From Tetrahymena thermophila SB210 (Eukaryota > Ciliophora > Oligohymenophorea > Hymenostomatida > Tetrahymenidae), in contig NW_002476326.1 in assembly GCF_000189635.1 (NCBI RefSeq), positions 62,001-126,000 of the forward strand: a stretch of 64,000 nucleotides of DNA, in the 5' to 3' direction. The position numbers and the translations under genes are program-made. The notes below the pieces were generated by a model. It worked only from the letters and a program-made list of their open reading frames with translations, searched no databases and was not told the DNA's origin. Shown here in pieces: positions 4,738 through 60,400 of this stretch. How positions within the stretch are numbered: the first letter of the stretch is position 1; every line of letters begins with the position of its first letter.

Positions 4738-5484
4738 TTAAATAATTATATTCTCAGTTACTTTTTGCACTTAATATTTCTAGTTTTTTATGAGTTTTTT
4801 TTTACTTTTTTTTATATGATGTTAATTTGCTCTTATTTTGTATATTTTTATTCTAACAATTTTAAGAAAATAAAGTTATTTATTAAATAAATAATTGCGT
4901 CGAAATTAATTAAAGGTCTTAAAATTTATTTTTTAAAGATTTTTAATAAAAAGAAAATTTAATGAGCGTTTATAGTACCATTAAATTTTATGAATTTTAA
5001 GTGTAATTATAATAAATTTAGTCATAATTAACAAATTAAGCAAGCAAAATAATCTGTATGTAATATTATAATTTATTAATAAGAAAATGTATTTTTCATT
5101 AAACAAGAAAATATAAATTAATTTTTAAACATAGAATAAATTAAATTTCTTTTAGATTATTATATTTATTATTTTTATTATTCAAGTAAATTTTATAATT
5201 CATTTTAAGGTAAAAAGACAATTATTAAATTCGTTTAAACAGATTGTAAGAAACAGTATTAATTTCTTAATTAAATAGATATAGGTATAAAGTTACTCTA
5301 GTAGAATAATGGCAGTTTTTTATATAATTTGTATAGTAAGTATTATTAAAATGATAACATTTTAAATATTGTTTTTAAATTTTATATTAGTAAAATAAAT
5401 TATATTTTTTGAATAAGTTTATTTTTAATTTTTCTCAATTTATTTTGTTAAATAGAACATTTTTACAGATAATTGAAAATCCTT
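4738..5484. other. AT-rich intergenic spacer
   Basis: Spacer between the 5' end of the Cys-rich gene and the 3' end of the TTLL gene, both on the minus strand. It consists of homopolymeric A/T runs. I see no open frame with coding character and no RNA-like GC block. Confidence 0.6.
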
Positions 5485-39309: not shown

Positions 39310-41316
39310 ATGGTAGATTCGGTAGGCCCAAGCGGCAAGTATAGTTTCACTGAAGATGAATTAAAAAATATAAATCCTAAAACAGCTTATAATATCAACA
39401 TAGGTAATATTTTCTTAGTATTTGTTTAGTATCATATCTTATTTATTTATAATAAATTCAGGCGTTCTTGGACATATTGATAGTGGTAAAACTAGTTTAT
39501 CTAAGGCTTTAAGTGTAGTTACTTCAACAGCATCTATGGATAAAAATCCTTAAAGTTAAGAAAGAGGAATAACATTAGATTTAGGATTTTCTGCATTTTT
39601 TACTAAAACACCATAACGATTAAAAGAATAATTGAAATTAGATTATTTATAATTCACTTTAGTTGATTGCCCTGGTCACGCATCTCTAATTAAAACAATC
39701 ATTGGAGGAGCTTCTATTATAGATATTATGTTTCTCGTTATTGATATAAATAAAGGAATCTAAACTTAGACTGCTGAATGTCTAGTAATAGGTAATACTT
39801 TACTATTTTTTATTATAAATTTTAAATTTCTTTAAGTAAACTAAAGTTTTTCCTTCTCTTCTTTTAATGTTATCAAATAAAAATTGGTTAAATTCTTAAA
39901 AGTTAAAATAATTTTATAAATTAAATTAATAAATATAGGAGAACTACTGATGCAAAAGATGATAGTTGTATTGAACAAAATTGATATGATTCCAGAAGAT
40001 AAAAGAGCTGAAACTATTAGTAAGAAAATGGAATAATTAAGAAAAGTATTTTCGAAGACAAAGTTTGGAGCAAGTGTTCCAATGATTCCAATTGCTGCAT
40101 CCTAAGGAGCAATTGATGGATAATCATTACATATAGAGAATTTGATAGATTGTTTGCTTGGTGAAATAGAGATTCCTTAAAGATAAAAGGATGGACCATT
40201 TTTTTTCTTAATCGATCACTGCTTTCCTATTAAAGGAAAAGGAAGTGTTGTGACTGGAACAGTTATTTAAGGCTAGCATAAAGCAGGTGATGAAGTAGAA
40301 TTCCCTCTCATAAAAGAAGTTAAAAAATCAAAGCAAATTTAAATGTTTAAAAAACCAGTAGAAAGTATTATTTAAGGAGATAGAGCAGGTATTTTATTTA
40401 CATAGTTGGATAATACTTTAATTGAAAGAGGTATAGCATGCACTCCTGGCATAATTCAATTCATCTCATATGCAATTATTCCAGTAAAAGATTTGATTGT
40501 AAATATAACTTGTTAATTTCATCATTTTTTAAAAATAAGGTAAACAAAGTTAATTATTTCAAATATCCCATCTCGTCAAAAGGAAAATTTCATGTTACTA
40601 CCGGTCATTAAACTTTAATGGCTTCTATAAAGTTATTTAAGGTTTAGATTACTTAAGAAGAGCTTTTGATTTTAGAAAGTACAAAGCAGAATATTAATTT
40701 CTAGACTGATAAAAATAAAAAAGATACATTCAACTTTGATTTTAATAAAGAATATGAGTATGTTGAAAACTATGATGACTATCTTAAAGTTAAAAAACCT
40801 AATGAGTGCCTTTTTGCTTTATTAGAATTTGAGAAGCCAGTTTGTGCTTCAAATGGAACTCTTTTTATCTGCTCAAAGTTTGATACTGATATTACTGCTA
40901 ATATATGCAGAATAGGATTCTATGGAAATTTAATTACATAATTAACATAAGAAGAATTAAAAAACAAAAAACTTAAAATTTTTAGAGAGAAACTTAGAGA
41001 AGGTATCATCGAAAAAGTTAGTGATGACTACTCTGTTATAATAAAAGACATGTTTAAAAAAGAAACAAAAATTGAAGTGTATGTTAATAAGCCTATTGAG
41101 ATATCCTTAACTAAAAATGTTGGTAAAATATAAGGAGCCTTTGGTAAAAGCGGTAAAGTAAAAGCCGTTTTCCCTAACGGAGTCTTACACTAACCTATTC
41201 AAGTAAATGCTAATGGAGAAGAGTAGAAATAAAATTAAGATGATATTCTAACAGAAGAAAAATTAGTTGGACAAACTGTTATTTTAAAATACAATAAAAT
41301 TCTTTTCAACAAATGA
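39310..41316 (+). CDS. EEFSEC: Selenocysteine-specific translation elongation factor (eEFSec/SelB)
   Basis: GTPase that delivers Sec-tRNA to UGA codons marked by a SECIS element. Three GT...AG introns (39404-39461, 39792-39938, 40484-40539) give 581 residues, close to the human length. G1 is GHIDSGKT (35-42), with the Ile that separates eEFSec from EF-Tu-like GTPases; then ERGITLDLGF, DCPGH (100-104) and NKID (154-157). The following beta-barrels show the family blocks DHCFPIKGKGSVVTGTVIQG, QGDRAGILFTQ, ERGIACTPG, KGKFHVTTGHQTLMAS and LLEFEKPVCASNGTLFICSK. The C-terminal domain IV, specific for Sec incorporation, has DDYSVIIKDMFKKETKIEVY and GAFGKSGKVKAVFPNGVL. No key element is missing. The gene implies that UGA, the only stop here, is also read as Sec in selected mRNAs. 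Confidence 0.96.
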
Positions 41317-42153
41317 TTTTATCTTTATACTTTAAAAAAAATATTTAAAATAAATTGCAAACACGAATTTTCTTAAAATAGTAAAAAATTTTATTTAACA
41401 AATTTAAAAATTATCAACCAACTTTTTTAAATCTAAGTAAAGTAATTCATGTTTGTTTTCTAGTTTTAGTAACTATCCTAATAACTATTTGAAAATTCTA
41501 TTTTAAGTATTTCAATATTTATTACAATTATAAATGAAAAATGTATTTTAATTCATTTATAATTAATTACAAATGAAAATGTTAATACTATAATTAATGA
41601 TTAAAAAATAAAATCAATGTCTTAAACCCTATTTTTCTAGAAGGAAAATAGCACACAAAATATGCTTCAAAAATAATCTGTTATCTAATAATGTAAAAAC
41701 ATATCAATCAGAATGTCAATTTAAATAGTGTTTTAAATATTATCAAAATAAATTTAACAGCTTGAAGATTCTGACTTAAAAAGCTCAAATATTAATTACA
41801 TTTGCAAATGAAAATATGAATTTCATTGTAAAATTAATATAAGCAATTTATTTTTCATCAATCATATTTTTTATAAATTCGAGAAATTGTTATCATATCA
41901 ATGATATTCTTCACATGTTTTCTGATTATTTTATTCACTTAGTTAATTAAAAAACTCATAATTTATTTAATTTGTTAGAAAAAATAAATTTGTGGATGTA
42001 TTTGGTTAATTCTAACAAATAAATCTTGTTTATTTATTCGTTCAAAGTCAAATTTTTCGTCTTTTTTTTCAATAATATATTTATTTTTTTTGATTGCTAG
42101 ATATTATTTTTATTATTATATTAAAGAGAAAGATAGATAAATATCAAAAAAAA
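41317..42153. other. Intergenic spacer
   Basis: AT-rich spacer between the eEFSec and P450 genes, both on the plus strand. I see no gene or repeat of note. Confidence 0.6.
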
Positions 42154-43864
42154 ATGAAGATAAATTTAGATAAAATCATTCATTTTACTAAAAGAGATAA
42201 AATATTTCAATAGGGTATCTTTACTTTGATAGTTATAGTCCTTACAGTGACTATAATATCTTTAATTATTAAAAGAAGGCGAGCAAATAAAGCTAAATCA
42301 ATGCCCATTTAACATAACAGTCAACCTAAAGAAGTTTAAACTTGTGAATAAATGATGAAATAATTAGAAAATAATGGATTTATTAGACTTAAAAGCTATC
42401 GCCCATTTTAAGAAGAAGACTTATTCAAATACGATGATGAGCTTTACTCTGTTAAGCAATTTAAAAGCAGGTATCCGAATGCAAAAGGTTTTATTTGCTA
42501 TTCAGATAGTAGCCAGAAAGTACCATATAATTATATTGGAATTTGTGATGCAGATTTAATTCATGAGTTTATGGTAGAGAAAGAAAAATATTATGAAAGA
42601 GATGTAACACTTTCTTATGTAGCAAGGATTCTCGGAGATAGCTTACTATTTAATCTTTCAGATATATGGAGAATGAAGCGCAAAGTTTATGGATAGATGT
42701 TCCATTTTTATTAATATCATCAGCTTGTGAAGTTGGTGAGAGAAATAACTACAAAAAATTCTTATATAATAGACATGAATTCTTAAAAGCCTGTATAGCT
42801 AATATCTCACTTTGAAGATATTCTAGGAGAATGGTCTCTTCATCTATTTTTCGGATATAATGCTAGCTAATATGATTTACAATCTAAATTAAAAGCAGCT
42901 TATAACAATGCTCGCTCTGCCATACTCCTTTTACAGCCCCAAAATATAATAAACTGTCTTGACCCTTTAAAGGAAGTCCTCCTTGAATATCTATACATCA
43001 CTTCTGATTAGATAAAAAGCGATCCTGATTACTAAAGCAAACCTTAAAATAACATCACATGGTATAAAATTTAAAAATTAATTAAAAACAATAAAATAAA
43101 TGTTTTTTTTAGTTAGTTATTCATTCATTCATTCATTTTACTTACTAATAATTTTTTTGAAATTTAAAAACAGGTTTTTGCTAAATAGCAAAGAAGTTTA
43201 ATGGAACAAAGATTTCCTTGATTAAATTTGCTAAGATATTATCATCTTTTTCTTCGCTGGAAGAGATACGATGGCTCATACTCTTTAAATGATGTTTTAT
43301 TATTTATGTATTTACCCTGAATATAAAAAGAAGATAGACGAAGAAATAAATAGCCTAAACGGAGATTATTCTGTTTAAAATATTTCAAATTTAAATTATT
43401 TAGAAGCTGTTTTAAAAGAAACTCTTAGACACTATGGACCAACAACTACAATTTTACCTAAAGTTGTCATGGAAAGACATTCCTTTATGAACGATAAAGT
43501 ATTCTTAGAAGAAGGAACAATTGTTTCTTTGGCAATCCAAGAGCTTAATTATGATCCACAACATTATGAAAATCCCTTTAAGTTTTATCCCGAGAGATGG
43601 TTTGACGAAAACTTAAAACAGAAGGAGAAGAAAATTTTCATGCCTTTCTCATATGGCTCCCATAAGTGTATAGGAGATAAGTTGGCACTACCAGTGATGA
43701 AAATGCTATATATAACTCTGAATGAATATTTTTCAATAGACATTGATCCTAGCTTCAAATTAAAGCTTGTTGCCCTAATATAATATACTCCTTCTACTTA
43801 AATACCTTTTCTAATTACTAAAAAAAAAAATATTTAAAGCAATAACGAAGTGTATTTTTCGTGA
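42154..43864 (+). CDS. Cytochrome P450 monooxygenase
   Basis: Heme-thiolate monooxygenase, probably anchored in the ER. Two exons separated by a 112-nt intron (43062-43173) encode 532 residues. Residues 21-38 form an N-terminal membrane anchor (GIFTLIVIVLTVTIISLI) followed by Lys/Arg. The I-helix oxygen-binding motif is FFFAGRDTMAHTL (about 328-340), the K-helix ExxR is KETLRHYG, the PERF-like region is FYPERWFDE and the heme loop is FSYGSHKCIGDKLAL with the proximal ligand Cys468. His replaces the usual Arg two residues before that Cys. All core elements are present, so the enzyme should be active. The substrate is unknown; ciliate P450s are diverse and several are linked to detoxification or sterol-like metabolism. 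The intron carries a (CATT)n run. Confidence 0.95.
43121..43139. repeat. (CATT)n microsatellite in the P450 intron
   Basis: Four to five copies of ATTC/CATT inside the single intron of the P450 gene. Confidence 0.85.
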
Positions 43865-44126
43865 TTGATTAAATATTAAATAAAAAATAATTAAATGATT
43901 TATTTGTTTATTGTGCTAGCATAGCTATCTATGATTATAAGTCCATTAAATTAGATAAATTAAATGAGAGAAATTACTATGACAGAAAAAATATTTTCAT
44001 TTTGTATCAAAATTAAATTAATGAGTGATTTAATTAATTAAATTGTGATTATAACTAATATATATATGTATGTACATTAATAATATTACTTACTTACTTT
44101 TTTATAAATTTATCAACTAATATTTA

Positions 44127-45260
44127 ATGAATTTTGAAAATTACACTTACATATTTTATGTCAACACTTAAATTAGAATATATCATAAGCCATTAAAAGA
44201 AATAGAAGATGAAGTGAAATAGGCTCTTTTGGAAAACCCAAATGACGTAGAGCATTTAATAATATTTGATCAAATTCTCTTTAAATACCATCTTGATTAT
44301 ACTGCTGCTATTAAAGTTATAAAATAAGTTCTCTAAATCTAAGCAGATTGCATAGATGGGCGTATAGATTTGATACAAATAATACTAGATTTTAAACTGA
44401 GCTCATATGAAGATTGTTTTTAATTATTAGAAGAGTGCATGCGAATTGATCCTTCGTATTGGCGAATTTATTTTACGAAAATAAGGATTTTAGATAATAT
44501 TGGAGATGATGATGAAAAAGTAATGAAAGAAGTTGACAGATGCATGAAACTATATCCTTAAAATAAATATTTTATTATTTATAATGCATAAATTTTATCA
44601 GAGCAAACAGATAAAAGAGAGTAGGTGCAGTGCCTGCTTGATCCCTATAAAAATAGCACAGAGTTAGATTTTGATTTGCTAAGAAGAATCTCTTATGCTT
44701 ATGGAAACTTAAAATAAGGAAAAGAAGCTATTGAATACATAAAACAAGCTATTAAATTTAATTAAAATTCATACATAGCATATAATGAATTTGGATATTT
44801 AGAAAGGTCAGTTAATAATAATAATTACACTTGCTTGGAATATTGCTTAGTTTCCTTAAAGCTCAATCCTAGGTATACTTTTACTTTAAATAACTTAGCA
44901 GCTACTTTCAAAATTCTAAACAAATAATAAGAGTGCATAAAATGCTAGAAGAAAGCATTGCAGCTAAAGAGTAATCCTTTTTCATATCATTAACTTGTGT
45001 ACGATTTTTATGAAATGCAAAGCATAGATGAAGCTAAATACTATTCTTATAAAAGTGTTCAAAAATTCTAATAAGATAAGTCAAGCAATTTTCTATTACA
45101 AAAAATAAACAGAAAATAATTCAGTAATACAATTTTAGATTATGAAGAATAAGAATTATAAGGTATAAAATGTCTTAATTTTAAAGTGGAAAATCTATAA
45201 CAAGAAGAAGACTATGTGGAAACTTCAATAACATAAAATGAAGTTTACGAGGATGATTGA
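44127..45260 (+). CDS. TPR-like helical repeat protein, TPR-1
   Basis: Intronless, 377 residues, TGA stop. The protein is a chain of helix-turn-helix units with TPR-type spacing and motifs (EEVKQALLENPNDVEHLIIF-like first unit; AIEYIKQAIKFNQNSYIAYN; LEYCLVSLKLNPRYTFTLNN; CIKCQKKALQLKSNP). TPRs bind other proteins. It is the diverged founder-like copy of a family with two close members at 52425 and 56127: the blocks DPSYWRIYFTKI, LLRRISYAY and NLAATFK line up with NSNYWRTYF-like, LMRRLSYF and NNIAYTYQ blocks there. An acidic tail ends the protein (QNEVYEDD). It lies 5' of the GZ genes on the same strand. The partner is unknown; genomic pairing with GZ genes suggests one. Confidence 0.85.
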
Positions 45261-45491
45261 AAAAAAAAATATAATAAACTCTTAAAATTACTACACTAAA
45301 ATAATTATTAATCTTTTTTATATTACACATAAAATAGAATGTTACTTATAAATATTTAAATTTTAAACAGATAAATGTTAAAAGAATAAATTGGATGTGT
45401 ATGTGGTCTTTAATTAATTATTCATTTATTTTGTTTTGCAAAAAACTTAAAAAACAAGAATTAATTATTAAAAAAAAATTTTAAGTGGATT

Positions 45492-45944
45492 ATGCTAAAT
45501 TAATTAAAAGAATAATAGATAGCAGAAATAAAAAACTTTACCAAAAGATTAGAAAAGGCTCTCAATAAAATATTCAAAAAATAAAATTTTTATTTAACGG
45601 CTAGCAAAATATAAGATGCTTGTATACAATCTGTCTATCAATAAATATAAATTAATAAAAATGAAAAATACTTTGCATCATTTCTAAATAAGTAAGAATT
45701 TATATTCTAAAAAAATAGCATTCAGAATTTAGAAAAAGAAATAGATTAGAAAATTTCTTTGTTATAAAGGTATAAATTTTATATAAATTATTATTAAAAG
45801 CAGGCTATCTAAGTTATTTTAAATATTTTAAAAGTGAATAAGACTATTTTGATGCAAGGTTAGATCTTATAAATATTATGCTCCTATTTTAGGTTTGTAA
45901 ATTAGATTAATAAAATCATTTGTTATAGGAGTGTTTTTATTTGA
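45492..45944 (+). CDS. Small Lys/Gln-rich hypothetical protein
   Basis: A 150-codon frame from MLNQLKEQQIAEIKNFTKRL to TGA with TAA/TAG as Gln. It is rich in K, Q, N and I and looks helical (IQNLEKEIDQKISLLQRY). A GTATAA...AAAAG stretch near 45770-45800 could be a short intron. No domain recognised. It sits between TPR-1 and GZ-1. It could equally be a decayed remnant of another duplicated gene. Confidence 0.4.
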
Positions 45945-47103
45945 CAAAATTTATCTTTAAGTATAATGAGAATGAAAAAATAAGTTTGAAATTTTTGAAA
46001 TTAATTGAAAAAAAAGATTTACATTTTAATTTAATTAAAATATAACTTAAACAACTTAAAAAAGCAAGATCAAGTCTTTAAATCATTAAAACAAGAATTA
46101 AAATCAAATCTACTCAGCTTTTAAATTTATTAAAATCTTGGCTTAAAATTTCAATATTATTAAATTATCTATTTTATCAAATTAAATGAAAATAATTATT
46201 TACCTAAATCATCATATATTAAGTATGGTACTGCTAAATTAAGGTATTTTTCACAAAAAAATGGATATGATTAAGGTAGTTTTTCTAAAAAAAATCTTAA
46301 AATGAATTAAAAAAAAATAAAGTACTTTACTTAAAATTAAAAACAGTCTCAAGATTTTTTAAATATAATCAAGATAGTTGAGTGAGTAAGCGTACTTACT
46401 TATTATATGAGGATATTATAATAATTTTTTTTTTTTTCAAATAATAAAAATTCAAAATTTTTTATTATAAAATCACTAAAATTTAATTTTATGATTTACT
46501 TAAATGACCTCCTTTCTTTTACAAATTTAATTTGATTCATAAGTACATACATAATAAATAATAAAAAATGATATTTTTTATTTAATTTTAAAAATTAATG
46601 GTAATGTACTATTTAAAAGCAATATTAATTTTTTTAATTTGCTAAGTGCAATATTTTACTTACTTTTTTTTATTATTAATTAAATCTTTCATTTATTTTT
46701 GGATCAGAAAAATATCTCAAGATTCTAAAAGAATTTAGAAAATACAGAATATTTTAAAAATTTATTAAACTAAAAGATTTGATTTAAATTTATCTGAATG
46801 AGACAAATTTTTTGAGTAATAATCTAAAAATAAAAAATTAATAAAATTAAAAATTGCTTGAATTAAATGAAATAGCTATGAAATAGATGATGTCATATAT
46901 TAAAGATAGATAAATAATTAATAGACACCTTTACTTAACTTAAATTTATGCTCAAATAAATTTGTTAAATAAAAATATTTTATTTTTTATTAAATTCAAG
47001 ATTTTTGTTATTGAAAAAGATTCACAATATTTTTTATAATATTTAATGAATATAAAATAAAAAAAATCATACAAAATTACTAAATTTATTAATTATTTCA
47101 TAA
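45945..47103. other. Spacer upstream of GZ-1
   Basis: AT-rich. The last 400 bases or so (46680-47100) resemble the DNA just upstream of GZ-2 (49310-49730) and, more weakly, of GZ-3 (53770-54338), including a shared ATTTAGAAAATACA-like block and a block near GACAAATTTT. The promoters were therefore duplicated with the genes. No other gene is seen. Confidence 0.55.
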
Positions 47104-48444
47104 ATGGATAAAATTGAAGACAAAAAAAAAATAAAATATACAAAAAATTTGAAAGTTCCTCCTTACAATTTGTAAAATGATGGTAAATATTACAACGATA
47201 CATTAAAATTCAATGCGCACTAGGGTCATGGGTTTGCAGCTGAACAAGCGAACAATCTGGTTGATTAATATAAAGGAGATAAAGCTGTTGTACTTAATGA
47301 GAATGTGAAAAACGGACCTGATAGAATTGTAAATGGAGTTTAGATACAAACTAAATATTGCAAGAATGCTTAAACTGCTGTTTAAAACTGCTTTAAAGAT
47401 GGTAAATTTAAATATAGTGGTTAATAAATTGAAGTTCCTCCTGAATAATATGACGAGGTGGTACGATTGTTTGAAAAAAGGGGAATAAAAAATGCTATAA
47501 TCAGAAAGGGACATGTCAGCTATAAAGTAGCTAAAAATATTGCTAAGTTTGGTACTATTGAAGGTCTTACCTATGATGTTGTTACTGGTATAAATATAGG
47601 TATTAATGCTTTTGGTATTAGTGCTTTATTCAGTTTTGCTTTTACTAAATGGAATGGAGGGAGTACAGAAGAATGTGTTAAAAATGCTTTATAAACATCT
47701 TCATAAATTTTTGGAATGAATGTTGTGTCACATGTATTTTCTCAATAATTCGCTAGATCTAGTTTAAACGGTTTTGCTCATTAATCGACACTAAATGTAT
47801 TGTAAAAGGTCTTAACTAAAGATTAATTTGCTACATTTGCTAATAGCTTTAGAGACGAGGGTGCTAAGAAAATTTATGGTGCTGCTGCTTAACAAAATGT
47901 TGCTAAAATGGTGAAAGGTTAAGCTGTCTTTGCTGCTGGTATCTTAGTCCTTTAAACAGGTTGGGATGTAATAAGTGTAACAAGAGGGAAAATATCTGGA
48001 AAATAGCTTGCTAAAAATTTTTTCAGTAACCTTGGTAGCGCTGGAGGTGGTCTTGCTTGTGCAGTGTATGGAACTTGTATAGCAGGACCTGTTGGAGGTT
48101 TAATCGGGGGAATAGTAGGTGGAATAATTTCTTAATTTGCCGTTAAAAAAGTACTTGATTAAATTACTCCTGATGATCTAGATGAGATGGCAGAAATTTT
48201 AAATAATTAAATTATAAAACTTTAGAAAGAAGAATATTTGCTTACTGAATAAGAGTTTAATGAAGTTCTAAATAAAATTAAATCATAAATAAACAAAGAT
48301 TTCCTTCAAAATATGTTTGAAAGCTCAGATAGATAATAATATGCTAAAAAAAAATTAAAAGATTATTTCTAATAGGCTTTAAAAAATAGACCAAAGGTTA
48401 AAGTAAATGAAGAAATTAATAATTATTTTAAAAATGAAGGATGA
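47104..48444 (+). CDS. GZ family member 1: QxK-motif N-terminal domain plus glycine-rich hydrophobic C-terminal part
   Basis: Unrecognised family, 446 residues, intronless. Residues 1-110: GHGFAAEQANNLVDQ (Glu47), KAVVLNENV, NGPDRIVNG (Asp73), then IQTKYC (Gln82-x-Lys84). This is the order of a PD-(D/E)xK-like active site in its QxK variant. A linker follows (IEVPPEQYDEVV, IIRKGHVSYKVAKNIAKFG). Residues about 155-182 are hydrophobic (GINIGINAFGISALFSFAF). The block EGAKKIYGAAAQQNVAKMV leads to a glycine-zipper-like segment at about 318-345 (AGPVGGLIGGIVGGII) and a helical tail with DQITPDDLDEMAEIL and MFESSDRQQYAKK. Such segments commonly insert in or span membranes. Two paralogs lie downstream. 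The overall look is bacterial; I cannot check that. Confidence 0.85.
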
Positions 48445-49732
48445 GATAAATATTCATACACAAATAATAATAAAAATTATATTAGCATTTATTATATATA
48501 TATATGATCAAAAATATTTTTGTGTTTAAAATGAAACTAATATTTATTCAAATTTCAAATATTACTTTTTAGATATTTGATTCTTAAAATAAAAGATTTA
48601 ATCATTTTATTTATTTAAATTACAATATTTATTTCAAATAAATTCTTATTTTTAAAATTTAACTATTTTTTATTAAATCTGATATTGAAATTAAATTACA
48701 AATTGTAATTAATATTTATGAATTATAGAAATATATTTTGGATTTAATTAATATTTAAGGAAATTTATTTTGAATAAATTTAAGAAATTACGAATTATTG
48801 ATATTTATATTATGTATTTATTTATTTGTTTCTCCTTATTAATTTTTAAAATTGAAATATTTTTAGTTCATTGATATATTAAATAAGCCCAGTATAGAAA
48901 ACACTTTTCTCAAGAAAAATCTGGCTTTAATTAAACCATATTGAAAATTTTTTAGAAACCGGCCTTAATATATTGCGGACTTAATAAATAAACCTATACC
49001 TTATAATTTATTAAGAAAATTACACAAAATTATAATTATCTTAAAAATGCTATAAAATACATTTTTTCTATCTTAGCTACTTTTAAAAATGTAAATAAAA
49101 TAATATTTAATAATTTTCCCAAAGGAAGAGGTACATAAATATCTAATATAATAAACTAGACAGCTACACTTTTTAGTGAAAAAACAATATTTCGAGTTCT
49201 TTAATATTGAGATTTTAACTAATTTTTAGTAAAGTGTTTTGTTAATTACAAGCTAGATAGATAGACTTCAATTTTTATAATTTTTGAATAGAATCATTTA
49301 TTTATTTTTTGAATAAGAAAAACATAGTAAGTAATCTTCTAAAAAAATTTAGAAAATACAATATAATTTAAAAATTTGTTTAACTCTTCACTTTGATTAG
49401 AATTTATCTAAATGTGACAAATTTTGTAAGTTAAAATCAAATACTAAAATTTAGAATAGATTTTAATTAATGATAGATAAATAAAATATTATATGGATTT
49501 GATAATAATTATTTTTATTTATTTTTAAGAAATAAAAACATGAAAAGTTTAAAATTTGTAATTAAAATAAATTTAAATAGATTAAAAAATGCTTATATTT
49601 ATTTATTAGTTGATGAAATTCAATAATTTTTGTTATTTAAAAAGACTCACACACAATATTTTTATTATAATTAAACAATATTAAATATCTAAAATCTTAA
49701 TAAATTACTAAATTTATTAATTATTTCATCAA
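48445..49732. other. Spacer between GZ-1 and GZ-2
   Basis: The start (48480-48560) shares the 3'-flank block TATATATGATCAAAAATATT with the other GZ genes. No TPR gene follows GZ-1, unlike the other units. A less AT-rich islet lies at 48885-48985. The last 400 bases or so are a copy of the GZ upstream region. Confidence 0.55.
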
Positions 49733-51322
49733 ATGGAAGACAAAAAAAAACTAAATACAAACAAATTGAAGATTCCTGCTTACAATTTGTAAAATGATAT
49801 TAAATGTTACAACGATACTTTAAAATTCAAAGGACCCTAGGGTCATGGATACGCAGCTGAACGACTGAACAATCTGGTGGATTAATTTAAAGGAAAAAAA
49901 GCTGTTGTTCTTAATGATAATGTGAAAAATGGACCTGATAGAATTTCAAATGGAGTTTATATACAAACAAAATATTGCAATAATGCTTAAGCTACTTTTA
50001 AAAGCTGCTTTCAAGATGGTAAATTTAGATATAGTGGCTAGTAAATTGAAGTTCCTCCAGAATAATATGACTAGGTGGTAAAATTGTTTCAAGATAGGGG
50101 AATAAAAGATGTTACAATAAGAAAGGGACATGTAAGCTATAAAGTAGCTAAAAACATTGCTAAGTCTGGAACTATTGAAGGCCTTACGTATGATACAGTT
50201 ACTGGTATAAAAATGGGTGTTAATACTTTTGGTATTAGTTTCTTATTAACTTTTGCTTGTACTAAATGGAGTGGAGGCAGTACAGAAGAATGTGTCTAAG
50301 AATCTTTGTTAACAGCATTATAAAGTTCTGGAATGACTGCAGTTTCACATATATTGTCTCAACAATTCATTAGATCTAGTTTTAACAGGTTTAATAATTA
50401 AAAGACACTAAATCGATTGAAAAAGCTTTTAAGTAAAGATTAATTGACTTCGCTTGTTAACAAATTCAAAAAGTAGGGTGTGAAGAAAATTTATGCTTAA
50501 CAAAATGTTGCGAAAATGGCGAATATTTAAATTATCAATACTGTAAGTATTTTAGTCGTTTAAACATTTTGGGATGTAATTGAAGTAACTAGAGGAAAAA
50601 TATCTAAAGAGTAGCTTTTAAAAAATTTTATTTGTAACCTCAGTAGTGCAGGAGGTTCTCTTTGTGGTACACTGTATGGAACTTGTTTAGGAGGACCTGT
50701 TGGAGGGTTGATTGGGGGAATAGCAGGAGGATAAGTTGCTTAATATGCTATTAAAAAAATACTTGATAAAATTACTCCTGATCTAGATAAGATGGTAGAA
50801 ATTTTATAAAGCTAAATTTGTAAACTTTAGCAAGAAAAATATTTGCCTACTTAATAAGAGTATAAAGAAATTTTAAATAATATAGAATAGCATTTAAAAA
50901 ATTTTTTTTGTAACCTTGTAAGTGCTGGAGGTGTTTTTGCTTGTTCAGTGTATGTAATTTGTACAGGACCTGTTGGAAGTTTAGTAGGGACAATAGTTAG
51001 AGGATAAGTTACTTAATATATTGTTAAAAAAATACTTGATAAAATTACTCCTGATCTAGATAAGATGGTAGAAATTTTTTAAAGCTAAATTTGTTAACTT
51101 TAGCAAGAAGAATATTTGCTTACATAATAAGAGTATGAAGAAATTTTAAATAAAATTAGTTTAGAAATAAAAGAAGATTTCTTTAAAAGCATGTTTGAAA
51201 GCTCAGATAGATAATTATATGCTAAAAAGAAGGTAAAACCTTATTTCTAACAGGCTTTAAAAAATAGACCTAAAATTTAAGTAAATGAAGAAATAAATAA
51301 ATATTTAAAATTTAAATTATGA
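49733..51322 (+). CDS. GZ family member 2, with internal duplication of the glycine-rich module
   Basis: Intact intronless frame of 529 residues, TGA stop. It matches GZ-1 and GZ-3 from the start: GHGYAAERLNNLVDQ, NGPDRISNG, IQTKYC, IRKGHVSYKVAKNIAKSG. The EGAKKIYGAAAQQ block is shortened (GVKKIYAQQNVAKMA). After the first glycine-rich segment (GGPVGGLIGGIAGG) and ITPDLDKMVEI, the same module occurs again (SAGGVFACSVYVICTGPVGS, then ITPDLDKMVEI), followed by the normal tail (MFESSDRQLYAKKK). The second glycine segment has lost several glycines. Despite about 85 extra residues and many substitutions there is no TGA in frame, so the copy seems to be kept by selection or the duplication is recent. 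Confidence 0.83.
50624..51150 (+). repeat. Internal tandem duplication inside GZ-2
   Basis: Two direct copies of about 265 bases: 50624-50890 and about 50896-51150. Each encodes NF(I/F)CNL..SAGG, a glycine-rich hydrophobic segment, KKILDKITPDLDKMVEI and QSQIC.LQQE. The copies differ mostly in the glycine-rich part. Confidence 0.85.
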
Positions 51323-51394
51323 GATAAATGTAAAAATAAATACAAATTCTATTAGTATTTATATATATGATCAAGTATATTTTTGAGTTTAAAA

Positions 51395-51715
51395 TTAATC
51401 TAAAACATTATTTCAATTTATTTTTTATTATTTTTTGTTCATTAAAAAAGTTATTTCTTAATAGTTTGCTGAATTTAAAATCATTAAATTTTTAATATAG
51501 TCATATAAATAATAATTGTTGATAGTAGAAATCAAAGCTTAATATTCTGATTTATCATTAAAAAAGTATTTAAGAAACATTTTTAAGATATCGTTTTGAG
51601 TATGAATTAGACAAATTAATTTTAAAAAATAGTCATTTGATACTTAAAAATATGATTAAGTAAATTTGTTTGTTTTAATAATCTAAAAATAAATAACAAA
51701 TTTTATAAAATTAAA
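51395..51715. repeat. GZ-TPR spacer, copy a (no TPR gene attached)
   Basis: Spacer DNA following GZ-2 that resembles 52010-52424 and 55715-56126. Shared blocks are TCTAAAACATTAT, TTATTATTTTTTGT, TTGCTGAATTTAAAA and GATTTATCATTAAAAAAGTA. Here it is not followed by a TPR gene but by a GZ fragment. Confidence 0.75.
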
Positions 51716-51731
51716 TTATAGAAAGTAGAAT

Positions 51732-51929
51732 GAATATTAACTTACTTAATAAGAGTTTGATGAAGATCTAATTAAAATTAAATCACAAATAAACAATAAT
51801 TTCCTTCACAACATGTTTGAAAAATCTGATATAAAATAATATCTTAAAAAAAGGGTAAAATCTTATTTCAAATAGGTTTTAAAAAATAGATCAATGATTT
51901 AAGTAAATAAAGAAATAAATAATTATTGA
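51732..51929 (+). pseudogene. GZ C-terminal fragment
   Basis: A 66-codon frame ending in TGA matches only the C-terminal tail of GZ proteins: LTQQEFDEDLIKIKSQINNN, FLHNMFEKSDIKQY and SYFKQVLKNRSMIQVNKEIN. The rest of the gene is missing. It lies between two copies of the spacer, as expected for the remains of a GZ gene after unequal crossing-over. It has no start of its own and is unlikely to be expressed as a functional protein. Confidence 0.85.
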
Positions 51930-52009
51930 AAAGAATAAGGATGAGATAAATATTCTTACACATTAATTAAAAATTATATTAGTATATACTTTGATATATG
52001 ATTAAAAAT

Positions 52010-52424
52010 ATTTTTGTGTTCAAAATTAATCTAAAACATTATATCAACTTATTTTTTATTATTTTTTGTCCATTAGCTAAGCTATTTCTATTTATTTTAA
52101 TTTCAAATAATATTTTACTGAAATAGCTTAGAAACATTTCATGAATTTTAAAAAAAGCATTTGTTCTATTATTAATAATTTGCTGAATTTAAAAACATTT
52201 AATTTTTTATTTACTCTGATAAATATTAATTGTTGATTAGTAGAAAGTAAAGTTTAACACAGTAATCTAACATTAAAAAAGTATTTAAGAAACATTTATA
52301 AGAAATTGTTTTGAGTTGAATTAGACAAATCAATTTTAAAAAAATAATGATTTTTGATACTTAAATTAATCATTAAGTAAATTCCATTTGATAGTATAAT
52401 CAAAATAAATAACAACACTAACAA
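52010..52424. repeat. GZ-TPR spacer, copy b
   Basis: Spacer between the GZ fragment and TPR-2, similar over most of its length to 55715-56126. It includes AAGCTATTTCTATTTATTTT, TAGCTTAGAAACATTT, TTGTTGATTAGTAGAAA and GATTTTTGATACTTAA. Confidence 0.8.
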
Positions 52425-53549
52425 ATGATAGTTAAATAAAAAGAAATTCATGTGTTCTTTGCAAACAAATAAACTATTGTTTTTAATGAAAATATCAAGT
52501 AATTAACATAAAAAATTTAGAAATAATATTCTGAAAATCCTCATGATATACAATTACAAACCATCTTAGTTTAAATTTACTATAAATATTAAAATAATTA
52601 CAAAATTGCATTAAAGATGATAAAAGATATATTGTTATAAGATAAATTACAAATGGACGCAAGGCTAGATTTAGCTGAAGTTATGCTAGAATTTAATATA
52701 GGCAGCAAAGAAGATATCTAAAATTTAATCAATGAATGTTACAACTTAGATTCAAATTATTGGCGTACATATTTTACTCATATAAAATACTACGATTCGA
52801 TTGACTCAAATGATCTATTCCTCAGTAATGTACTCTAGAAATTTCTTATAAAATTCCCAGATAACATATGGCTGAAGGTTTATCTGTTATAAGTATTATC
52901 TGATTCAAATAAATCTTAATTAAAAGAAGAAAATGCAAAAGAAATTTTGGATTCTGAGTTTCTTGACTATGACTTGATGAGAAGATTATCTTACTTTCTA
53001 ATGAATGTAGGATTTAATGATAAAGTTGTATAGTTGTTAGAGTAAGGTTTAAAGTTAAATCCCAATTCTTTTATTTGTTTAAATAATTTAGGATACTTTA
53101 TGAAAACTAATCATAAAAACAATCTTAAATGCATAGAACTTTGTAAAAAAGCTTTACAACAAAATTGTAGAAGTTTGGCAACATTAAATAACATAGCTTA
53201 TACATATTAAAATATGAATAATTACAAAGAGAGCACAAAGTACTTAAAAAAATGCTTAGATGTTTATTCTTATAGTCCTTGCTAGTTCTAAAATATTGCA
53301 TATAATTATTAAGAAATAGAAGAATTTGAAATGTCATTTTATTATTTGTTAAAAGGATTGAAAAAATTTCCTAACTCTGCTATCTTAAATGTATAATAAC
53401 AACTCATATTTTTTTAAATAAGTGATGAAGGAATAATAGACAAAGAAGAATTCGAACTTCTTTCATAAAAAAACTGTGATTTATAATTAAAATTAAATGA
53501 GCCTTACTATTATAACACTCATCTAATATTTAACTTAGTATTTTAATGA
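52425..53549 (+). CDS. TPR-like helical repeat protein, TPR-2
   Basis: Intronless, 374 residues, TGA stop; a close paralog of TPR-3 and a distant one of TPR-1. Tandem helical units show TPR-type residues: IQLQTILVQIYYKYQNNYKI, LLEQGLKLNPNSFICLNNLG, CIELCKKALQQNCRSLATLN, NIAYTYQNMNNYKESTKYL and SFYYLLKGLKKFPNSAIL. The conserved blocks MDARLDLAEVMLEF and NYWRTYF are shared by all three members. The C-terminus is LNEPYYYNTHLIFNLVFQ. There is no signal peptide or membrane segment, so it is probably a soluble adaptor. It follows a GZ fragment and the conserved spacer on the same strand. Confidence 0.88.
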
Positions 53550-54338
53550 AATTTTAAATAAATTTTAAAAGAATAAATTAATTATAATAAGTTAGTTAAT
53601 TGTAAAATATATATAAAAGTAATTAAAAATAATAAAACTACAAATTTAAACTATAAAAATATTTTCATGTTTTTTAGTTACAAAATCATTAAAATATATT
53701 TTTTTTTATACATAATTACCCTCCTTTTTAAATCTTAAAATGTTCCCTTGTAACCTCATTTTACAAATTTTATTTAATGCATAAGTAGATATAAAATAAA
53801 ATTTATTAAACTATACAATTTATCTGATTGGAACAAACTTTATAGGTTAGAATTAAAAAGTAAAAAATAAAAATAGTTAATAATTATTTAGAATTAATTC
53901 AAATAAATGACAGATAAATAAAACAATTGTACATGTTTAATAAATAATTTGATTTAGTTTTAAGCCTAATAAAATAATTTGTGTGAAAAAAGAAAATATC
54001 TTTTTTTGAAATAGAAAATTTTTTATGAAATAATTTGTAAAATTTAATATAATTAAAAATTATTTAGAATTAGTTCAAATAGGTATCAGATATATGACGC
54101 TTAATATTTTAAATGTATATTAATAATTAATAAAAACTTTTATTTAGCTTAAATTGGTATTTAGATAAATTTGATAAATAAAAGTATTTTATTTAGTTAG
54201 CTAAACTTTTATAAAATTCAAGATTTTTATTATTTAAAAAGACTGACACGAAAAATTTTATAATTTAATTAAATAAAAGAAAAAATATTAAATCTTAAAA
54301 AAGTCCTAAATTAATTAATTAATTAAATATTTCATAAA
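53550..54338. other. Spacer between TPR-2 and GZ-3
   Basis: AT-rich. Its second half resembles the upstream regions of GZ-1 and GZ-2. A second, imperfect internal echo of AATTATTTAGAATTA appears near 53885 and 54060. No gene. Confidence 0.55.
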
Positions 54339-55670
54339 ATGGATGACCAAAAAAAAATCAAATATACAAAAAATTTGAAAGTTCCCCCTTACAATTTGTA
54401 AAATGATGGTAAATATTACAACGATACTTTGAAATTCAATGCACGCTAGGGTCATGGATATGCAGCTGAACAAGCGAATAATCTGATTGATGAATTAAAA
54501 GGAGATAAAGCTGTTGTTCTTAATGAATATATTAAAAATGGACCTGATAGAATTGTGAATGGAAATTTAATTCAAACAAAATATTGTAAGAATGCTTATT
54601 CTACTTTTAAAAACTGCTTTAAAGATGGTGAGTTTAGATATAATGGCTAATAAATAGAAGTACCTCCAGAATAATATGACGAGGTGATACAATTGTTCCA
54701 AGATAAGGGAATAAAAGATGTTACAATAAGAAAGGGACATGTCAGCTATAAAGTAGCTAAAAACATTGCTAAGTCTGGAACTATTGAAGGCCTTACGTAT
54801 GATACAGTTACCGGTATAAAAATGGGTATTAATGTTTTTGGTATTAGTGCTGTATTAACTTTTGCTTTTACTAAATGGAATGGAGGGAGTACAGAAGAAT
54901 GTGTCAAATAATCTTTATAAACAGCATCATCAATTTTTGGAATGTCTCTCGTGTCACATGTATTTTCTCAATAATTCGCTAGATCTAGTTTTAACGGGTT
55001 TGCTCATTAATCGACACTAAATGTTTTGAAAAAGGTCTTAACTAAAGATTAATTTGCCTCATTTGCTAACAGCTTTAGAGGCGAGGGAGCTAAAAAAATT
55101 TATGGCGCTGCTGCTTAACAAAATGTTGCTAAAATGGTGAAAGGTTAAGCTGTCTTTGCTGCAGGTATCTTAGTCCTTTAAACAGGTTGGGATGTAATTG
55201 GTGTAACAAGAGGAAAAATATCTGGAAAACAGTTTGCTAAAAATTTTTTCAGTAACCTTGGTAGCGCTGGAGGTGGTATTGCTGGTGCAGTGTATGGAAC
55301 TTGTATAGCAGGACCTGTTGGAGGTATAATTGGGGGAATAGTAGGAGGAATAATTTCTTAATTTACCGTTAAAAAAGTACTTGATTAAATTACTCCTGAT
55401 GATCTAGATGAGATGGCAGAAATTTTATAAAATTTAATTTGTAAACTTTAGTAAGAAGAATATTTGCTTACTTAATAAGAGTTCAATGATTTTCTAAATA
55501 AAATTCAATCAGTAATAAACAAAGATTTCCTTCAAAACATGTTTGAAAGCTCAAATAGATAATAATATGCTAAAGATAAGGTAAAACCTTATTTCTAATA
55601 GGCTTTAAAAAATAGACCAAAAATTTAAGTAAATAAAGAAATAAATGAATATTTACAAATAGAAGGATGA
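54339..55670 (+). CDS. GZ family member 3
   Basis: Intact intronless frame of 443 residues, TGA stop. It is closest to GZ-1 and nearly identical over its last two thirds. The N-terminal pattern is GHGYAAEQANNLIDELKGD, NGPDRIVNG and IQTKYC, with the E, D and QxK positions kept. IIRKGHVSYK is TIRKGHVSYK here. The glycine-rich segment is AGPVGGIIGGIVGGIIS and the tail ends QVNKEINEYLQIEG. It is paired with TPR-3, which lies 456 bases downstream on the same strand across a conserved spacer. The high identity with GZ-1 but different pairing suggests gene conversion or recent duplication within the locus. Confidence 0.87.
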
Positions 55671-55714
55671 TAAAACTTATATTAGTATTTTAAAATAAGA
55701 TCAAATATATATTT

Positions 55715-56126
55715 GTGTTTTTTATTTAATCTAAAACATTATATTGAATTACTTTTTATTATTTTTTGTTCATTAACTAAGTTATTTCTATTTATTTTAA
55801 TTTCAAATTAAATTTTACTAAAATAGCTTAGAAACATTTGAAGAATTTAAAAAATATTTTTTCTTTTAATAATAATTTGCTGAATTTAAAAACATTAAAT
55901 TTTATATTTAATCAGATAAATAATAATTGTTGATTAGTAGAAAACAAAACTTAATATTCTAATTTATCATTAAAAAATTTTATAAGAAAAATTTATAAGA
56001 TATTGTTTTGAGTGTGAATTAGACAGTCAAATTAATTTTATAAAAATATTGATTTTTGATACTTAATTATATCATTAATTAAATTCTATTTAATTTTATA
56101 ATCTAAATAAACAACAGGATTAACAG
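55715..56126. repeat. GZ-TPR spacer, copy c
   Basis: Spacer between GZ-3 and TPR-3; similar to 52010-52424 from TCTAAAACATTATAT through TTGTTGATTAGTAGAAA to the TPR start. It shows that each GZ and the following TPR gene were duplicated as one segment. Confidence 0.8.
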
Positions 56127-57248
56127 ATGATAGTTAGCGAAAAAGTAATTCACGTGTTCTTTGCAAAAAAATAAACTATTGTTTTTAATGAAAATATCTA
56201 ACAGTTAACAGAAAATATTTAGAAATAATATTCTGAAAATCCTCATGATATATAGTTGCAAACCATCTTAGCTTAAATTTACTATAAATATTAAAATAAT
56301 TACAAAATTGCATTAAAGATGATAAAAGATATATTGATATAAGATACATTAGAAATAGACGCAAGGCTTGATTTAGCTGAAATTATGATAGATTTTAATT
56401 TAGGAAGCAAAGAAGATATATAAAATTTAATCTATGAATGTTATAACTTAGATTAAAATTATTGGCGTACATATTATATTCATATAAAATACTACGATTG
56501 GATTCAATCATAAGATCTATTCCTCATTATTGTGCTCAAGTAATTTCTTATAAAATTCCCAAATAATATATGGTTAAAGGTTTATCTGCTATAAATATTA
56601 TCTGATTAAAATAAATCTTAATTAAAAGAAGAAAATGCTTAAGAATTTTTGGATTCTGATTTTCTTGACTATGATTTGATGAGAAGATTAGCTTACATTC
56701 TAAGGAATGAAGGATTTAATGAAAAAGCTCTATAGTTGTTAGAGTAAGGTTTAAATTTAAATCCCAATTCTTTTATGTGTTTAAATAATTTAGGATACTT
56801 TATGAAAACTAATCATAAAAACAATCTTGAATGCATAGAACTTTGTAAAAAATCATTACAATAAAATTTTAGAAATTTGGCAACATTAAATAACATAGCT
56901 TATACATATGAAGACATGAATAATTTCAAAGAGAGTACAAAGTACTTAAAAAGATACTTAGATATTTATTAGAGCCCTTATTAATTCAAAAGTATTGCAT
57001 ATAATTATGAATAATTAGAAGAATTTGAAATGTCATTTTATTATTTGTTAAAAGGACTTAAAAAGTTTCCTAATTCTCCTATCTTAAACAAAAGATAGTA
57101 ACTTATATTTTTAAAAATAAGTGGTTAGGAAATAATAGACAAAGAAGAATTCGAAAGTCTTTCATAAAAAAACTGTGATTTATAATTAAAATTAAATGAG
57201 CCTTACTATTATAACCCTCATCTAATATTGAACTTTGTATTTAAATGA
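56127..57248 (+). CDS. TPR-like helical repeat protein, TPR-3
   Basis: Intronless, 373 residues, TGA stop; highly similar to TPR-2 throughout. Examples of shared blocks are LMRRLAYILRNEGFNEKALQ, CIELCKKSLQQNFRNLATLN, NIAYTYEDMNNFKESTKYL and LNEPYYYNPHLI. Substitutions are scattered and conservative with no frame damage, so both copies seem functional. It is the last plus-strand gene of the GZ-TPR locus and converges on TAF2. Confidence 0.88.
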
Positions 57249-57499
57249 AATTTTTAATAAATTTCTATAATCCAAGAATAAATTTAATATTGTCAATTGA
57301 GTAATTGTAAAATATTTATAAAAGTAATTAAAAATAATAAAAATACAAATTTAAACTAAAAAAATTGATTAAAAAGTAATCATTAATTAATTAATAGTTA
57401 AGAAATAAGTAAATTAATTAGTTAATTATTAAGATATTTAATATTTAAATTTTAAATATTATTTATTTATTTATTAATATAATTTATTATTTGTCAATT
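57249..57499. other. Short convergent spacer
   Basis: AT-rich 250 bases between the stops of TPR-3 and TAF2, with (TTAA)n and (TTTA)n runs. It must contain both poly(A) regions. Confidence 0.6.
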
Positions 57500-60400
57500 T
57501 CAATTAAAATGTATTCTATTTTTTTCTTCCTAAATACTTACACGACGTTAAGGTTATCCTTGAGGTGGTGCTAGTGATTTTATCTGGCTTTTATATTATT
57601 ATTGGATCATCTAGTTGCTGTTATCGATGACAATATTTTTTTATTTTTTTAAATGGCCATTGTATATTTCTTAAGCAGTGTCAAAACAATGATTGATTAA
57701 TTCCTTTAGCAAAGTGCATTATTTTGAATTTATTTTTTGTTGGTTCATGTACTCGTCTGGAACTTAAAGTGTTTGTCTTTTAACCTCTTCGAATGTTTTA
57801 TATTTATCTTTTTTCAAGCTTCTCTTGACTTACTTAAATGTTTATAGTTTTACATTGATTGTAATGTTATTGGAGTTAGCATCCATCACTCCGTTGGACT
57901 AATTTTATTATAATTCTTGATTCATTTTGTTTTGATGATCAGTTTATTTTATTAAAAAGTCAAGAATAAACTTAGATATTCTAATAACATTAATGTTTCC
58001 TTTATCTTTTTTACAAAAACTTAAAATTTAATCTTTAATGTTAATTTCAGAATTGATTCTTTTTCTTTTTTTCTACTTGAAGATTTATCTGTACTTTTGT
58101 TCGTCTGACTGGTCCTTCTTATCTCCATCGCTCTTAGACCAATTAATCCAATTTTTATCAACACAAAATCCAATGTCCTCTTCTTCTTGCACATATTATT
58201 TTCTCAAAATCGTGCAAAAAGGAGCCCAGTGGAAGTAGATATCCCTAAATTGATAATAAAATTTGTAAGTAAATCCAATAACAAATAATAAGAAATCTTT
58301 ACCTGTACATTTTAACCCAATAAAGTCTAACATATGGATTAACAAGAGAAGCTGATGATACAAGCTATTCCCAGATTACTTATGCAAAGAGCATATTTTA
58401 ATGATAGTCTAACTTAAATTGCATGTCTTCAACAAAGCTATTAATATTTACATGCACATACTGTTTTAGAATGGCAAGATAATTGATGTAGTCTTGGCAT
58501 TTGACAAAATTCAACCTAGCTTTTTCTATTTTTTTAATTAAGTACATAAACATTTGGTGGGGGAGATAAGAATTTGAGTCTTCCTTTCTTAGAAATTTAT
58601 CATAAAGATATATCCCTTTCATATTAACTTGATTTTTCTATACCTTGAAATCCTATATCTATTGATTAATTTAATCAATAAAGACTTAAAGGTCTTGATT
58701 TTCTGTTTGAATAACTACTCCTTTAGACTCTTTGACCTTAGAGTAACCATTTATTCCATTTTCGTTTGAATTCCCATTTTTATATGGTTGACTATTTCCA
58801 TTTACTTACTTTACTTCACCATTATTCTCTTCTATCATTTTATCATTTAATTCAATTTTAATATCTTCTATTTCATCTTCTTCTCCTTCTCCAAATTTAT
58901 TTTTGCAAATTAATTCATTCTTCATCAAAAAGAAATAATAATTCATAATAATAGCTTTAAATACAACATCGTTCAAAGAGCATTCAATATATTCTAACTC
59001 TAAGCACCTATTAATTAATATTTTAAATTATTCTTGATCAATAATGTACAATTAACTATTTTACCTTATAACTTCCTTAAGAATAGTCTTTTTAAAGTAA
59101 GGATGATTAGTCAGCAAAAGCGAACCAATTAAATTGGCTCTGTATATAGAGTCATCAAACCTATTAATAGAATTATCATTTTCTTTTATGAGCTTAAGGA
59201 GGTATCGAATAGTATTTTCAGGAGGATATTATTTGTCAGCATCAACTGATATATTTTCGTCATAACAGTAAGGAAGACCTCTGATAATCGTCATCAATAT
59301 CATATATTTCTTGTAGCTTTAAAAATTATTAGGCAGAAGTGATTTATCCTAACCAATTACATTCTTTTTAATAAGCTCTTCTAACAAATTAAAACATTCT
59401 TACCTAGCCTTTTTGACCTTAGATGAATTTCTAATAATTACATCCAAGATCTCTACTTAAAGGTCAGTTTCTAAATCATCTTTTTAGATTATAAGTTTTA
59501 AGTTCTTAACTATATCATATGAATCCTAGTCATAATTTTTATTTCTAAGCTATCTTAGCAGATAGAGAGTAACCGAAATATATTTGTATCTATGTTTTTT
59601 ATCCTTCATCAGTTAAGTCAAGAGTGAATGGAGATTCTATTGAGGAAAATCCAAAGAAAGTAAGTACTTATTAGAAGGGTCTATTTTTATCCATACTTTC
59701 TCTAATTCATCTTATTTCTTCTTTGATCCTAAAACCCATAAGTTGATAAATAAATTATGAATAAACAAATAATTGAATTTCTAAATAAAACAAATAATTT
59801 TTATGATAAATAAATAGAATTTAAATGGTTTCTTTAAGAAAGTTTTGAAAATACCTTATTGCTTTTTTTTGCTGTCGTCTTCGTCATCCTCTTTCTTTTT
59901 ACCGTTATTTTTACGAGTTTCTGATCTGTAGGCGACATCTCTTTTGAATTTGTGGTTTTTATCAAGAGTGATCATCTTAATTTCATCATCTTTTTAAATG
60001 GAAACATTTTGCTGATCTTTATCCCTAACTTCTGATACGATTAATTCAAGCTTTCCTTAGAAAAATCTAGATGACTTTAATATTAATGGTACTATCAATC
60101 TTCCATTACCAAGATTATCTTTGGTAATTATTTTAGGTTTTTCATCTTTGTGGGCTTGGCTTTTTGATTCCTCTCCTTCTTCATCAGAAGAATCTCCTTA
60201 CTCACCTATTGTTTCATTTTCTAGCATTCTCATTTAGTGTGAATGGATGCAATTTTTCTTTTCGAGCTCATTTCTATAATAGTTATGGTATCTAAAATAC
60301 TCTTCTTATAAAGCAGTTTAAGTTACTTGCACAGAAATCTTTTTAATAAAATAGCAAATTGATTTTACAGAAATAAAACAATAGTTAGTTATTTTACTTT

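What the first reader, a model, noticed from the sequence alone, without database searches (positions are those of the whole stretch)
44127..57248. Candidate undescribed two-component locus: GZ and TPR-like genes alternate and were duplicated together
Order on one strand: TPR-1, GZ-1, GZ-2, GZ fragment, TPR-2, GZ-3, TPR-3. GZ proteins join a nuclease-like motif pattern to glycine-rich hydrophobic segments; the TPR proteins look like soluble adaptors. Repeated co-duplication of two unrelated intact families suggests a working pair.
Basis: partly seen in the sequence, partly recalled or inferred. Interest (0 to 1): 0.85.

Follow-up and report, generated by a model that had tools for sequence, protein, structure and literature searches.

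The report
Ciliate copies of bacterial membrane nuclease
A ciliate chromosome carries three full copies of a nuclease-like membrane protein otherwise seen here only in bacteria and their phages, interleaved with repeat-protein genes that look mostly carried along by one duplication rather than proven partners.

Summary
Gene order and reading frames are as described (ciliate code). GZ is not an orphan: it belongs to a widespread bacterial family that includes E. coli YeeR, for which I found no known function. Residues 31-142 have a confidently predicted PD-(D/E)XK-like nuclease fold, with E47, D73, Q82 and K84 kept in 59 of 59 aligned members, all three ciliate copies included; hydrophobic, glycine-zipper segments follow. 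"Repeated co-duplication" shrinks to one shared segmental duplication (GZ 3' end + spacer + TPR, 86%). TPR-1 is old (31% identity) and lay outside it. TPR-2/3's nearest relatives lie on another contig without GZ, and the genome's two other, motif-less GZ relatives have no TPR neighbour. So pairing in the ciliate is unproven. Unexpectedly, some bacterial GZ genes (12 of 26 Negativicutes loci with room downstream) are followed by a Sel1-repeat (TPR-like) gene, and two others by JukA, a known anti-phage sensor; a GZ + solenoid partnership is plausible in principle. Best reading: a bacterial-type membrane-anchored nuclease, probably horizontally acquired and tandemly amplified, with the TPR genes mainly passengers.

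The parts
44127..45260 (+). TPR-1, 377 aa, TPR protein; ancient paralogue, not part of the recent duplication
47104..48444 (+). GZ-1, 446 aa, YeeR-family PD-(D/E)XK-like domain + glycine-zipper hydrophobic region
47194..47529 (+). PD-(D/E)XK-like domain of GZ-1 (residues 31-142; E47, D73, Q82, K84)
48031..48156 (+). glycine-zipper hydrophobic region of GZ-1 (residues 310-351)
49733..51322 (+). GZ-2, 529 aa, motif intact, pairwise dN/dS 0.74-0.84 with the other copies
50605..50883 (+). first copy of an internal duplication of the zipper segment in GZ-2
   Evidence: 83.9% to 50881-51156
50881..51156 (+). second copy of the internal duplication in GZ-2
51729..51929 (+). GZ fragment: last ~65 residues of a former GZ copy, upstream of TPR-2
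52425..53549 (+). TPR-2, 374 aa
54339..55670 (+). GZ-3, 443 aa, motif intact
56127..57248 (+). TPR-3, 373 aa, 81% identical to TPR-2
51698..53660 (+). copy A of the only duplicated block found that holds both families (GZ 3' end, spacer, TPR-2)
55420..57365 (+). copy B of that block (GZ-3 3' end, spacer, TPR-3), 85.6% identical

Best explanation
The locus is a small tandem array of a bacterial-type membrane nuclease gene (YeeR family) in a ciliate genome. Each GZ protein has an N-terminal PD-(D/E)XK-type nuclease domain and a helical body whose hydrophobic and glycine-zipper segments would insert into or assemble at a membrane, so the likely mode of action is a membrane-tethered, metal-dependent nuclease that cuts nucleic acid held at or passing through a membrane (in bacteria, plausibly phage or other foreign DNA; in the ciliate, perhaps DNA from prey or endosymbionts). 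The gene was probably acquired from bacteria and then amplified. The TPR genes belong to an independently expanded family of this ciliate; one was caught in a single segmental duplication with its GZ neighbour and is mainly a passenger. Shown: gene order, homology, motif conservation, predicted fold, single shared duplication, no pairing seen elsewhere in this genome. Inferred: catalysis, membrane insertion, horizontal transfer, biological role.
Confidence: 0.6

Rival explanations
1. A working two-component module: TPR-2/TPR-3 are sensors or adaptors that recruit or restrain the GZ nuclease, a eukaryotic parallel of bacterial GZ genes followed by a Sel1-repeat or JukA gene.
For: In 91 bacterial and viral GZ loci, 16 genes resemble the Sel1 partner, 14 of them 1-3 genes downstream on the same strand in 11 loci; in Negativicutes 12 of 26 GZ loci with room downstream (29 loci fetched, 3 cut by contig ends) have it, 5 of the 12 not in the first set. 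JukA/YaaW lies directly downstream of GZ in L116 and two genes downstream in L093; JukA is described as the sensor of the Juk anti-jumbo-phage system (passages of PMC13282480). Same order, GZ then solenoid, in the ciliate. TPR-2/TPR-3 dN/dS 0.51.
Against: TPR-1, -2 and -3 match TPR and not Sel1 models. GZ and TPR were not found together elsewhere in this genome. One duplication event only. The ciliate GZ lie outside the group that holds the Sel1-paired bacteria, though that fork is weakly resolved (87/89 for the group). Most of the 91 loci have no Sel1 neighbour.
Confidence: 0.25
2. A decaying array: GZ copies are relics of a past acquisition with relaxed constraint and no present function.
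For: GZ fragment (51729-51929), internal duplication in GZ-2, dN/dS 0.74-0.84 for pairs with GZ-2; two motif-less, divergent relatives on C409 and C138.
Against: Three long intact frames with all catalytic-type residues; GZ-1/GZ-3 dN/dS 0.43.
Confidence: 0.13
3. Bacterial contamination of the assembly.
For: All relatives found outside this genome are in bacterial, plasmid, phage or viral records; no eukaryotic collection was on hand.
Against: 22-36 in-frame TAA/TAG codons per gene, AT-rich composition like the rest of the window, one 597-kb contig.
Confidence: 0.01

Closest known systems
YeeR (E. coli CP4-44 prophage, flu-yeeR-irmA cluster) and its bacterial relatives
   Same: Shared core: GHG..AAE..N, GxDR, QTKY, EVPxxQY, and in untruncated relatives the hydrophobic helical and glycine-zipper part. 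K-12 YeeR ends inside the core; PMC6480617 (passages) says yeeR is truncated in K-12.
   Different: YeeR has about 370 extra N-terminal residues before the core (alignment); the ciliate GZ start almost directly before it. No function of YeeR is given in the passages I saw.
PD-(D/E)XK nuclease superfamily (Hjc, EndoMS, CdiA-CT, YaeQ, XisH, type II restriction enzymes)
   Same: Predicted core fold and E...D...QxK residues.
   Different: Q in place of the usual D/E of (D/E)XK, and fusion to a long hydrophobic glycine-zipper body; no activity tested.
PADLOC candidate PDC-M09B
   Same: 15 of 36 bacterial GZ match it, best E 9.6e-12; of nine scanned singly four match, one of them (L112, E 0.002) along both the nuclease-like and the zipper part.
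   Different: The three ciliate GZ do not match it at E <= 1; it is only a candidate defence protein and a search for its name found no paper.
Juk system (JukA sensor + effector)
   Same: JukA/YaaW homologue near GZ in 2 of 91 loci.
   Different: No JukB model is listed for any GZ scanned (3 ciliate; 36 bacterial); the ciliate neighbour is TPR, not JukA.
Ciliate TPR family of this genome
   Same: TPR-1 to -3 belong to a family with nine further long members.
   Different: No GZ was found beside the others.

Membership tests
YeeR core family | Homologous core over both nuclease-like and zipper parts in bacterial members | tested here: met
   28-37% identity in the best segment, mostly over about 400 residues, for the 80 loci kept; 41% over 106 aa with E. 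coli YeeR
YeeR core family | Long N-terminal extension as in enterobacterial YeeR (absent also from other bacterial members such as Selenomonas) | tested here: not met
   a feature of a subgroup, so the core membership stands
PD-(D/E)XK superfamily | alpha-beta-beta-beta-alpha-beta core | tested here: met
PD-(D/E)XK superfamily | Conserved acidic and (D/E/Q)xK active-site residues | tested here: met
   E47, D73, Q82, K84 in 59 of 59; these positions were not part of the genome scan pattern
PD-(D/E)XK superfamily | Metal-dependent nuclease activity | not testable with these tools
   needs a biochemical assay
TPR proteins | TPR motifs above Pfam cut-off | tested here: met
   P0001 TPR_8, TPR_17, TPR_2, TPR_14; P0004 TPR_10, TPR_14, TPR_17, TPR_19; P0006 TPR_14, TPR_19, TPR_2
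Bacterial GZ-Sel1 pair | Partner carries Sel1 repeats | tested here: not met
   no Sel1 match to TPR-1, -2 or -3 at E <= 1
Juk / PDC-M09 defence systems | GZ matches the system's effector model | tested here: inconclusive
   ciliate GZ: no match; bacterial GZ: PDC-M09B match in 15 of 36, no JukB listed

The most novel reading that the evidence does not exclude
A eukaryote has domesticated a bacterial membrane-tethered nuclease effector and wired it to its own TPR proteins as sensors, giving a two-component innate defence that parallels bacterial GZ-Sel1 and GZ-JukA gene pairs.
Probability: 0.15. Interest if true: 0.85.

Novelty: new variant of a known kind. Interest (0 to 1): 0.5.

Why it matters
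It gives a likely catalytic identity (PD-(D/E)XK-type nuclease tethered to a membrane) to the YeeR family of bacteria and phages, shows that a ciliate carries intact amplified copies, and exposes a recurrent bacterial association with Sel1-repeat or JukA proteins that points to a defence role. Each point is directly testable.

Tried and rejected
Bacterial contamination: rejected by the genetic code. Donor clade: two trees (92 rows; 65 rows, after I dropped long-branch, near-duplicate and short rows) put the ciliate GZ on one long branch at an unresolved fork, so no donor is named; no test of alternative placements was run. TPR-1 as part of the duplication: rejected. Pfam and NCBIfam give GZ no family above cut-off; the pdsO and tape-measure matches are weak resemblances of the zipper part. 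TPR-2 matches the PADLOC candidate PDC-M71B at E 1.1e-4 over 227-278, probably generic TPR. Solved structures by sequence: no useful match for GZ. Foldseek alone on the full model: 0 matches at E <= 0.001. A single-protein scan of viral contigs found nothing; the alignment scan confirmed 6 of 36 stretches. Papers, seen as listings only unless said: YeeR (41 papers hold the word, 30 listed, many unrelated; passages of two read), JukA (passages of one read), PDC-M09 none, glycine zipper with nuclease and anti-phage terms, bacterial genes in ciliates, Tetrahymena with glycine zipper one unrelated paper. The TPR proteins were not folded (both prediction jobs went to GZ).

Limits: E110 to Y116 look invariant partly because the genome scan used that stretch as its pattern. 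The query for the Sel1 enrichment was drawn from the neighbours themselves, and some of its hits match by the unnamed N-terminal domain rather than by Sel1 repeats; Pfam itself finds Sel1 in 11 of 84 downstream frames. For the Pfam tallies I gave 84 of 89 downstream and 52 of 77 upstream frames. The 91 loci hold near-copies (for example L096/L102; L043/L124/L129/L130), and genes in them were called by a simple longest-frame script. dN/dS are pairwise Nei-Gojobori values without a test.

Full report
What is there. The window lies in contig C206 (597 kb) of a 101-Mb, 445-contig genome held without a name; genetic code, size and composition suggest a Tetrahymena-like ciliate (my inference). Each of the six genes is one uninterrupted frame.

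Duplication history. Self-BLAST of 41,001-60,500 gives GZ-1 against GZ-3 86.2% over 1679 columns, GZ-1 against GZ-2 77.9% over 1646, and one block holding both families: 51698-53660 against 55420-57365, 85.6%, running from a GZ 3' end through the spacer and the whole TPR gene. The spacer alone is 385 of 450 aligned bases identical, with 50 gap columns. So the 'GZ fragment' reads as the stump of a GZ that once sat before TPR-2, and GZ-TPR was duplicated once as a unit. dS is similar for GZ-1/GZ-3 (0.20), GZ-2/GZ-3 (0.21), GZ-1/GZ-2 (0.26) and TPR-2/TPR-3 (0.18), which suggests one burst; TPR-1/TPR-2 has dS 1.8. GZ-2 also carries an internal repeat of its zipper segment.

The rest of the genome. 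With GZ-1 as query the whole genome yields seven matches, a lower bound by the tool's own words: five in this array, one on C138 and one on C409. The C409 frame (724 aa) and the C138 frame (565 aa) score mainly on the later part of the profile and lack the nuclease motif as far as I can read them. The TPR family has nine further long members on C17 (two), C174 (three), C308, C262, C311 and C394, plus a split one on C308, and weaker matches elsewhere. A GZ profile finds no GZ in the 9.9 to 15.5 kb fetched around these, and the TPR profile finds no TPR in the 9.9 kb around the C138 and C409 relatives; the weaker TPR places were not fetched. In the TPR tree TPR-2/3 group with the two GZ-free C17 genes (93/95, not starred) and TPR-1 does not.

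What GZ is. No Pfam or NCBIfam model claims it, but tblastn finds relatives on bacterial plasmid records (10 of 72,556, two of them over at least 80% of the query) and in one phage record (1 of 50,697); a scan of bacterial and archaeal genomes confirmed 110 of 116 stretches, 80 kept, and viral contigs gave 6 of 36. In E. coli the match is YeeR of the CP4-44 prophage. Papers on yeeR (PMC9431211 and PMC6480617, passages) deal with its cluster, duplication and regulation; the passages I saw give no function. Of 380 Negativicutes genomes 29 have a match at E <= 1e-40, the patchy spread one expects of accessory genes.

Bacterial neighbours. Of 84 downstream frames scanned, 11 match Pfam Sel1; of 16 Sel1-partner-like genes in 91 GZ loci, 14 are one to three genes downstream on the same strand, in 11 loci, and two lie upstream (L048, L100). 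Among 29 Negativicutes GZ loci, 3 are cut at contig ends; 12 of the other 26 have the partner downstream, and no such gene was found elsewhere in the 29 stretches. Two loci carry JukA/YaaW downstream; a review describes JukA as a sensor of early infection with diverse effectors (PMC13282480, passages). WYL domains are found in 6 of 52 scanned upstream frames. Fifteen of 36 bacterial GZ match the candidate defence model PDC-M09B, weakly for those seen singly. In a phage record GZ follows the annotated endolysin with one small gene between, and three further loci share that upstream gene, a cargo-like position. Together this suggests, without proving, a defence-type effector.

Verdict on pairing. 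The ciliate pairing rests on one duplication and was not found again in the genome, so passenger status is the simplest account. The bacterial Sel1 association makes a solenoid partner plausible, but the ciliate TPR are not Sel1 proteins, and in the trees the ciliate GZ lie outside the group with the Sel1-paired bacteria, at a weakly resolved fork.

Noticed in passing
window 42094-43864 (+): Frames upstream of TPR-1 carry a cytochrome P450-like heme-binding stretch (motif recalled), spread over two overlapping frames, so probably a gene with an intron.
   Followed up: no
L142 (C409) 5254-7527 (-): 724-aa relative of GZ that lacks the nuclease motif but by eye seems to hold two copies of the EVxxxQY stretch: a possible non-catalytic derivative.
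   Followed up: partly
L143 (C138) 3541-5280 (+): Frame whose second half matches only the zipper/helical part of GZ, with an unrelated first half.
   Followed up: partly
L039 7604-9771; also L047, L048, L050-L052, L064, L067, L069, L071, L072: Conserved downstream partner of bacterial GZ: an unnamed N-terminal domain plus Sel1 repeats, in L039 as two genes.
   Followed up: yes
L185, L186, L198 (zinc-ribbon-like); L191 (acyl-carrier-like): Bacterial GZ proteins carry varied N-terminal additions: a CxxC zinc-ribbon-like stretch in some, an acyl-carrier-like stretch in one, read by eye.
   Followed up: no
L043, L123, L129, L130: GZ gene just downstream of the gene annotated as endolysin in a Heliusvirales phage record and of its relatives in three other loci, a cargo-like position.
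   Followed up: no
L116 2506-3300; L093 9372-10226: JukA/YaaW homologues near GZ in a Prevotella and a Pantoea record.
   Followed up: partly
L075, L076, L078, L097, L103: A subgroup sharing an upstream gene (probably the DUF1232 matches) and a small downstream cysteine-rich gene in five loci.
   Followed up: no
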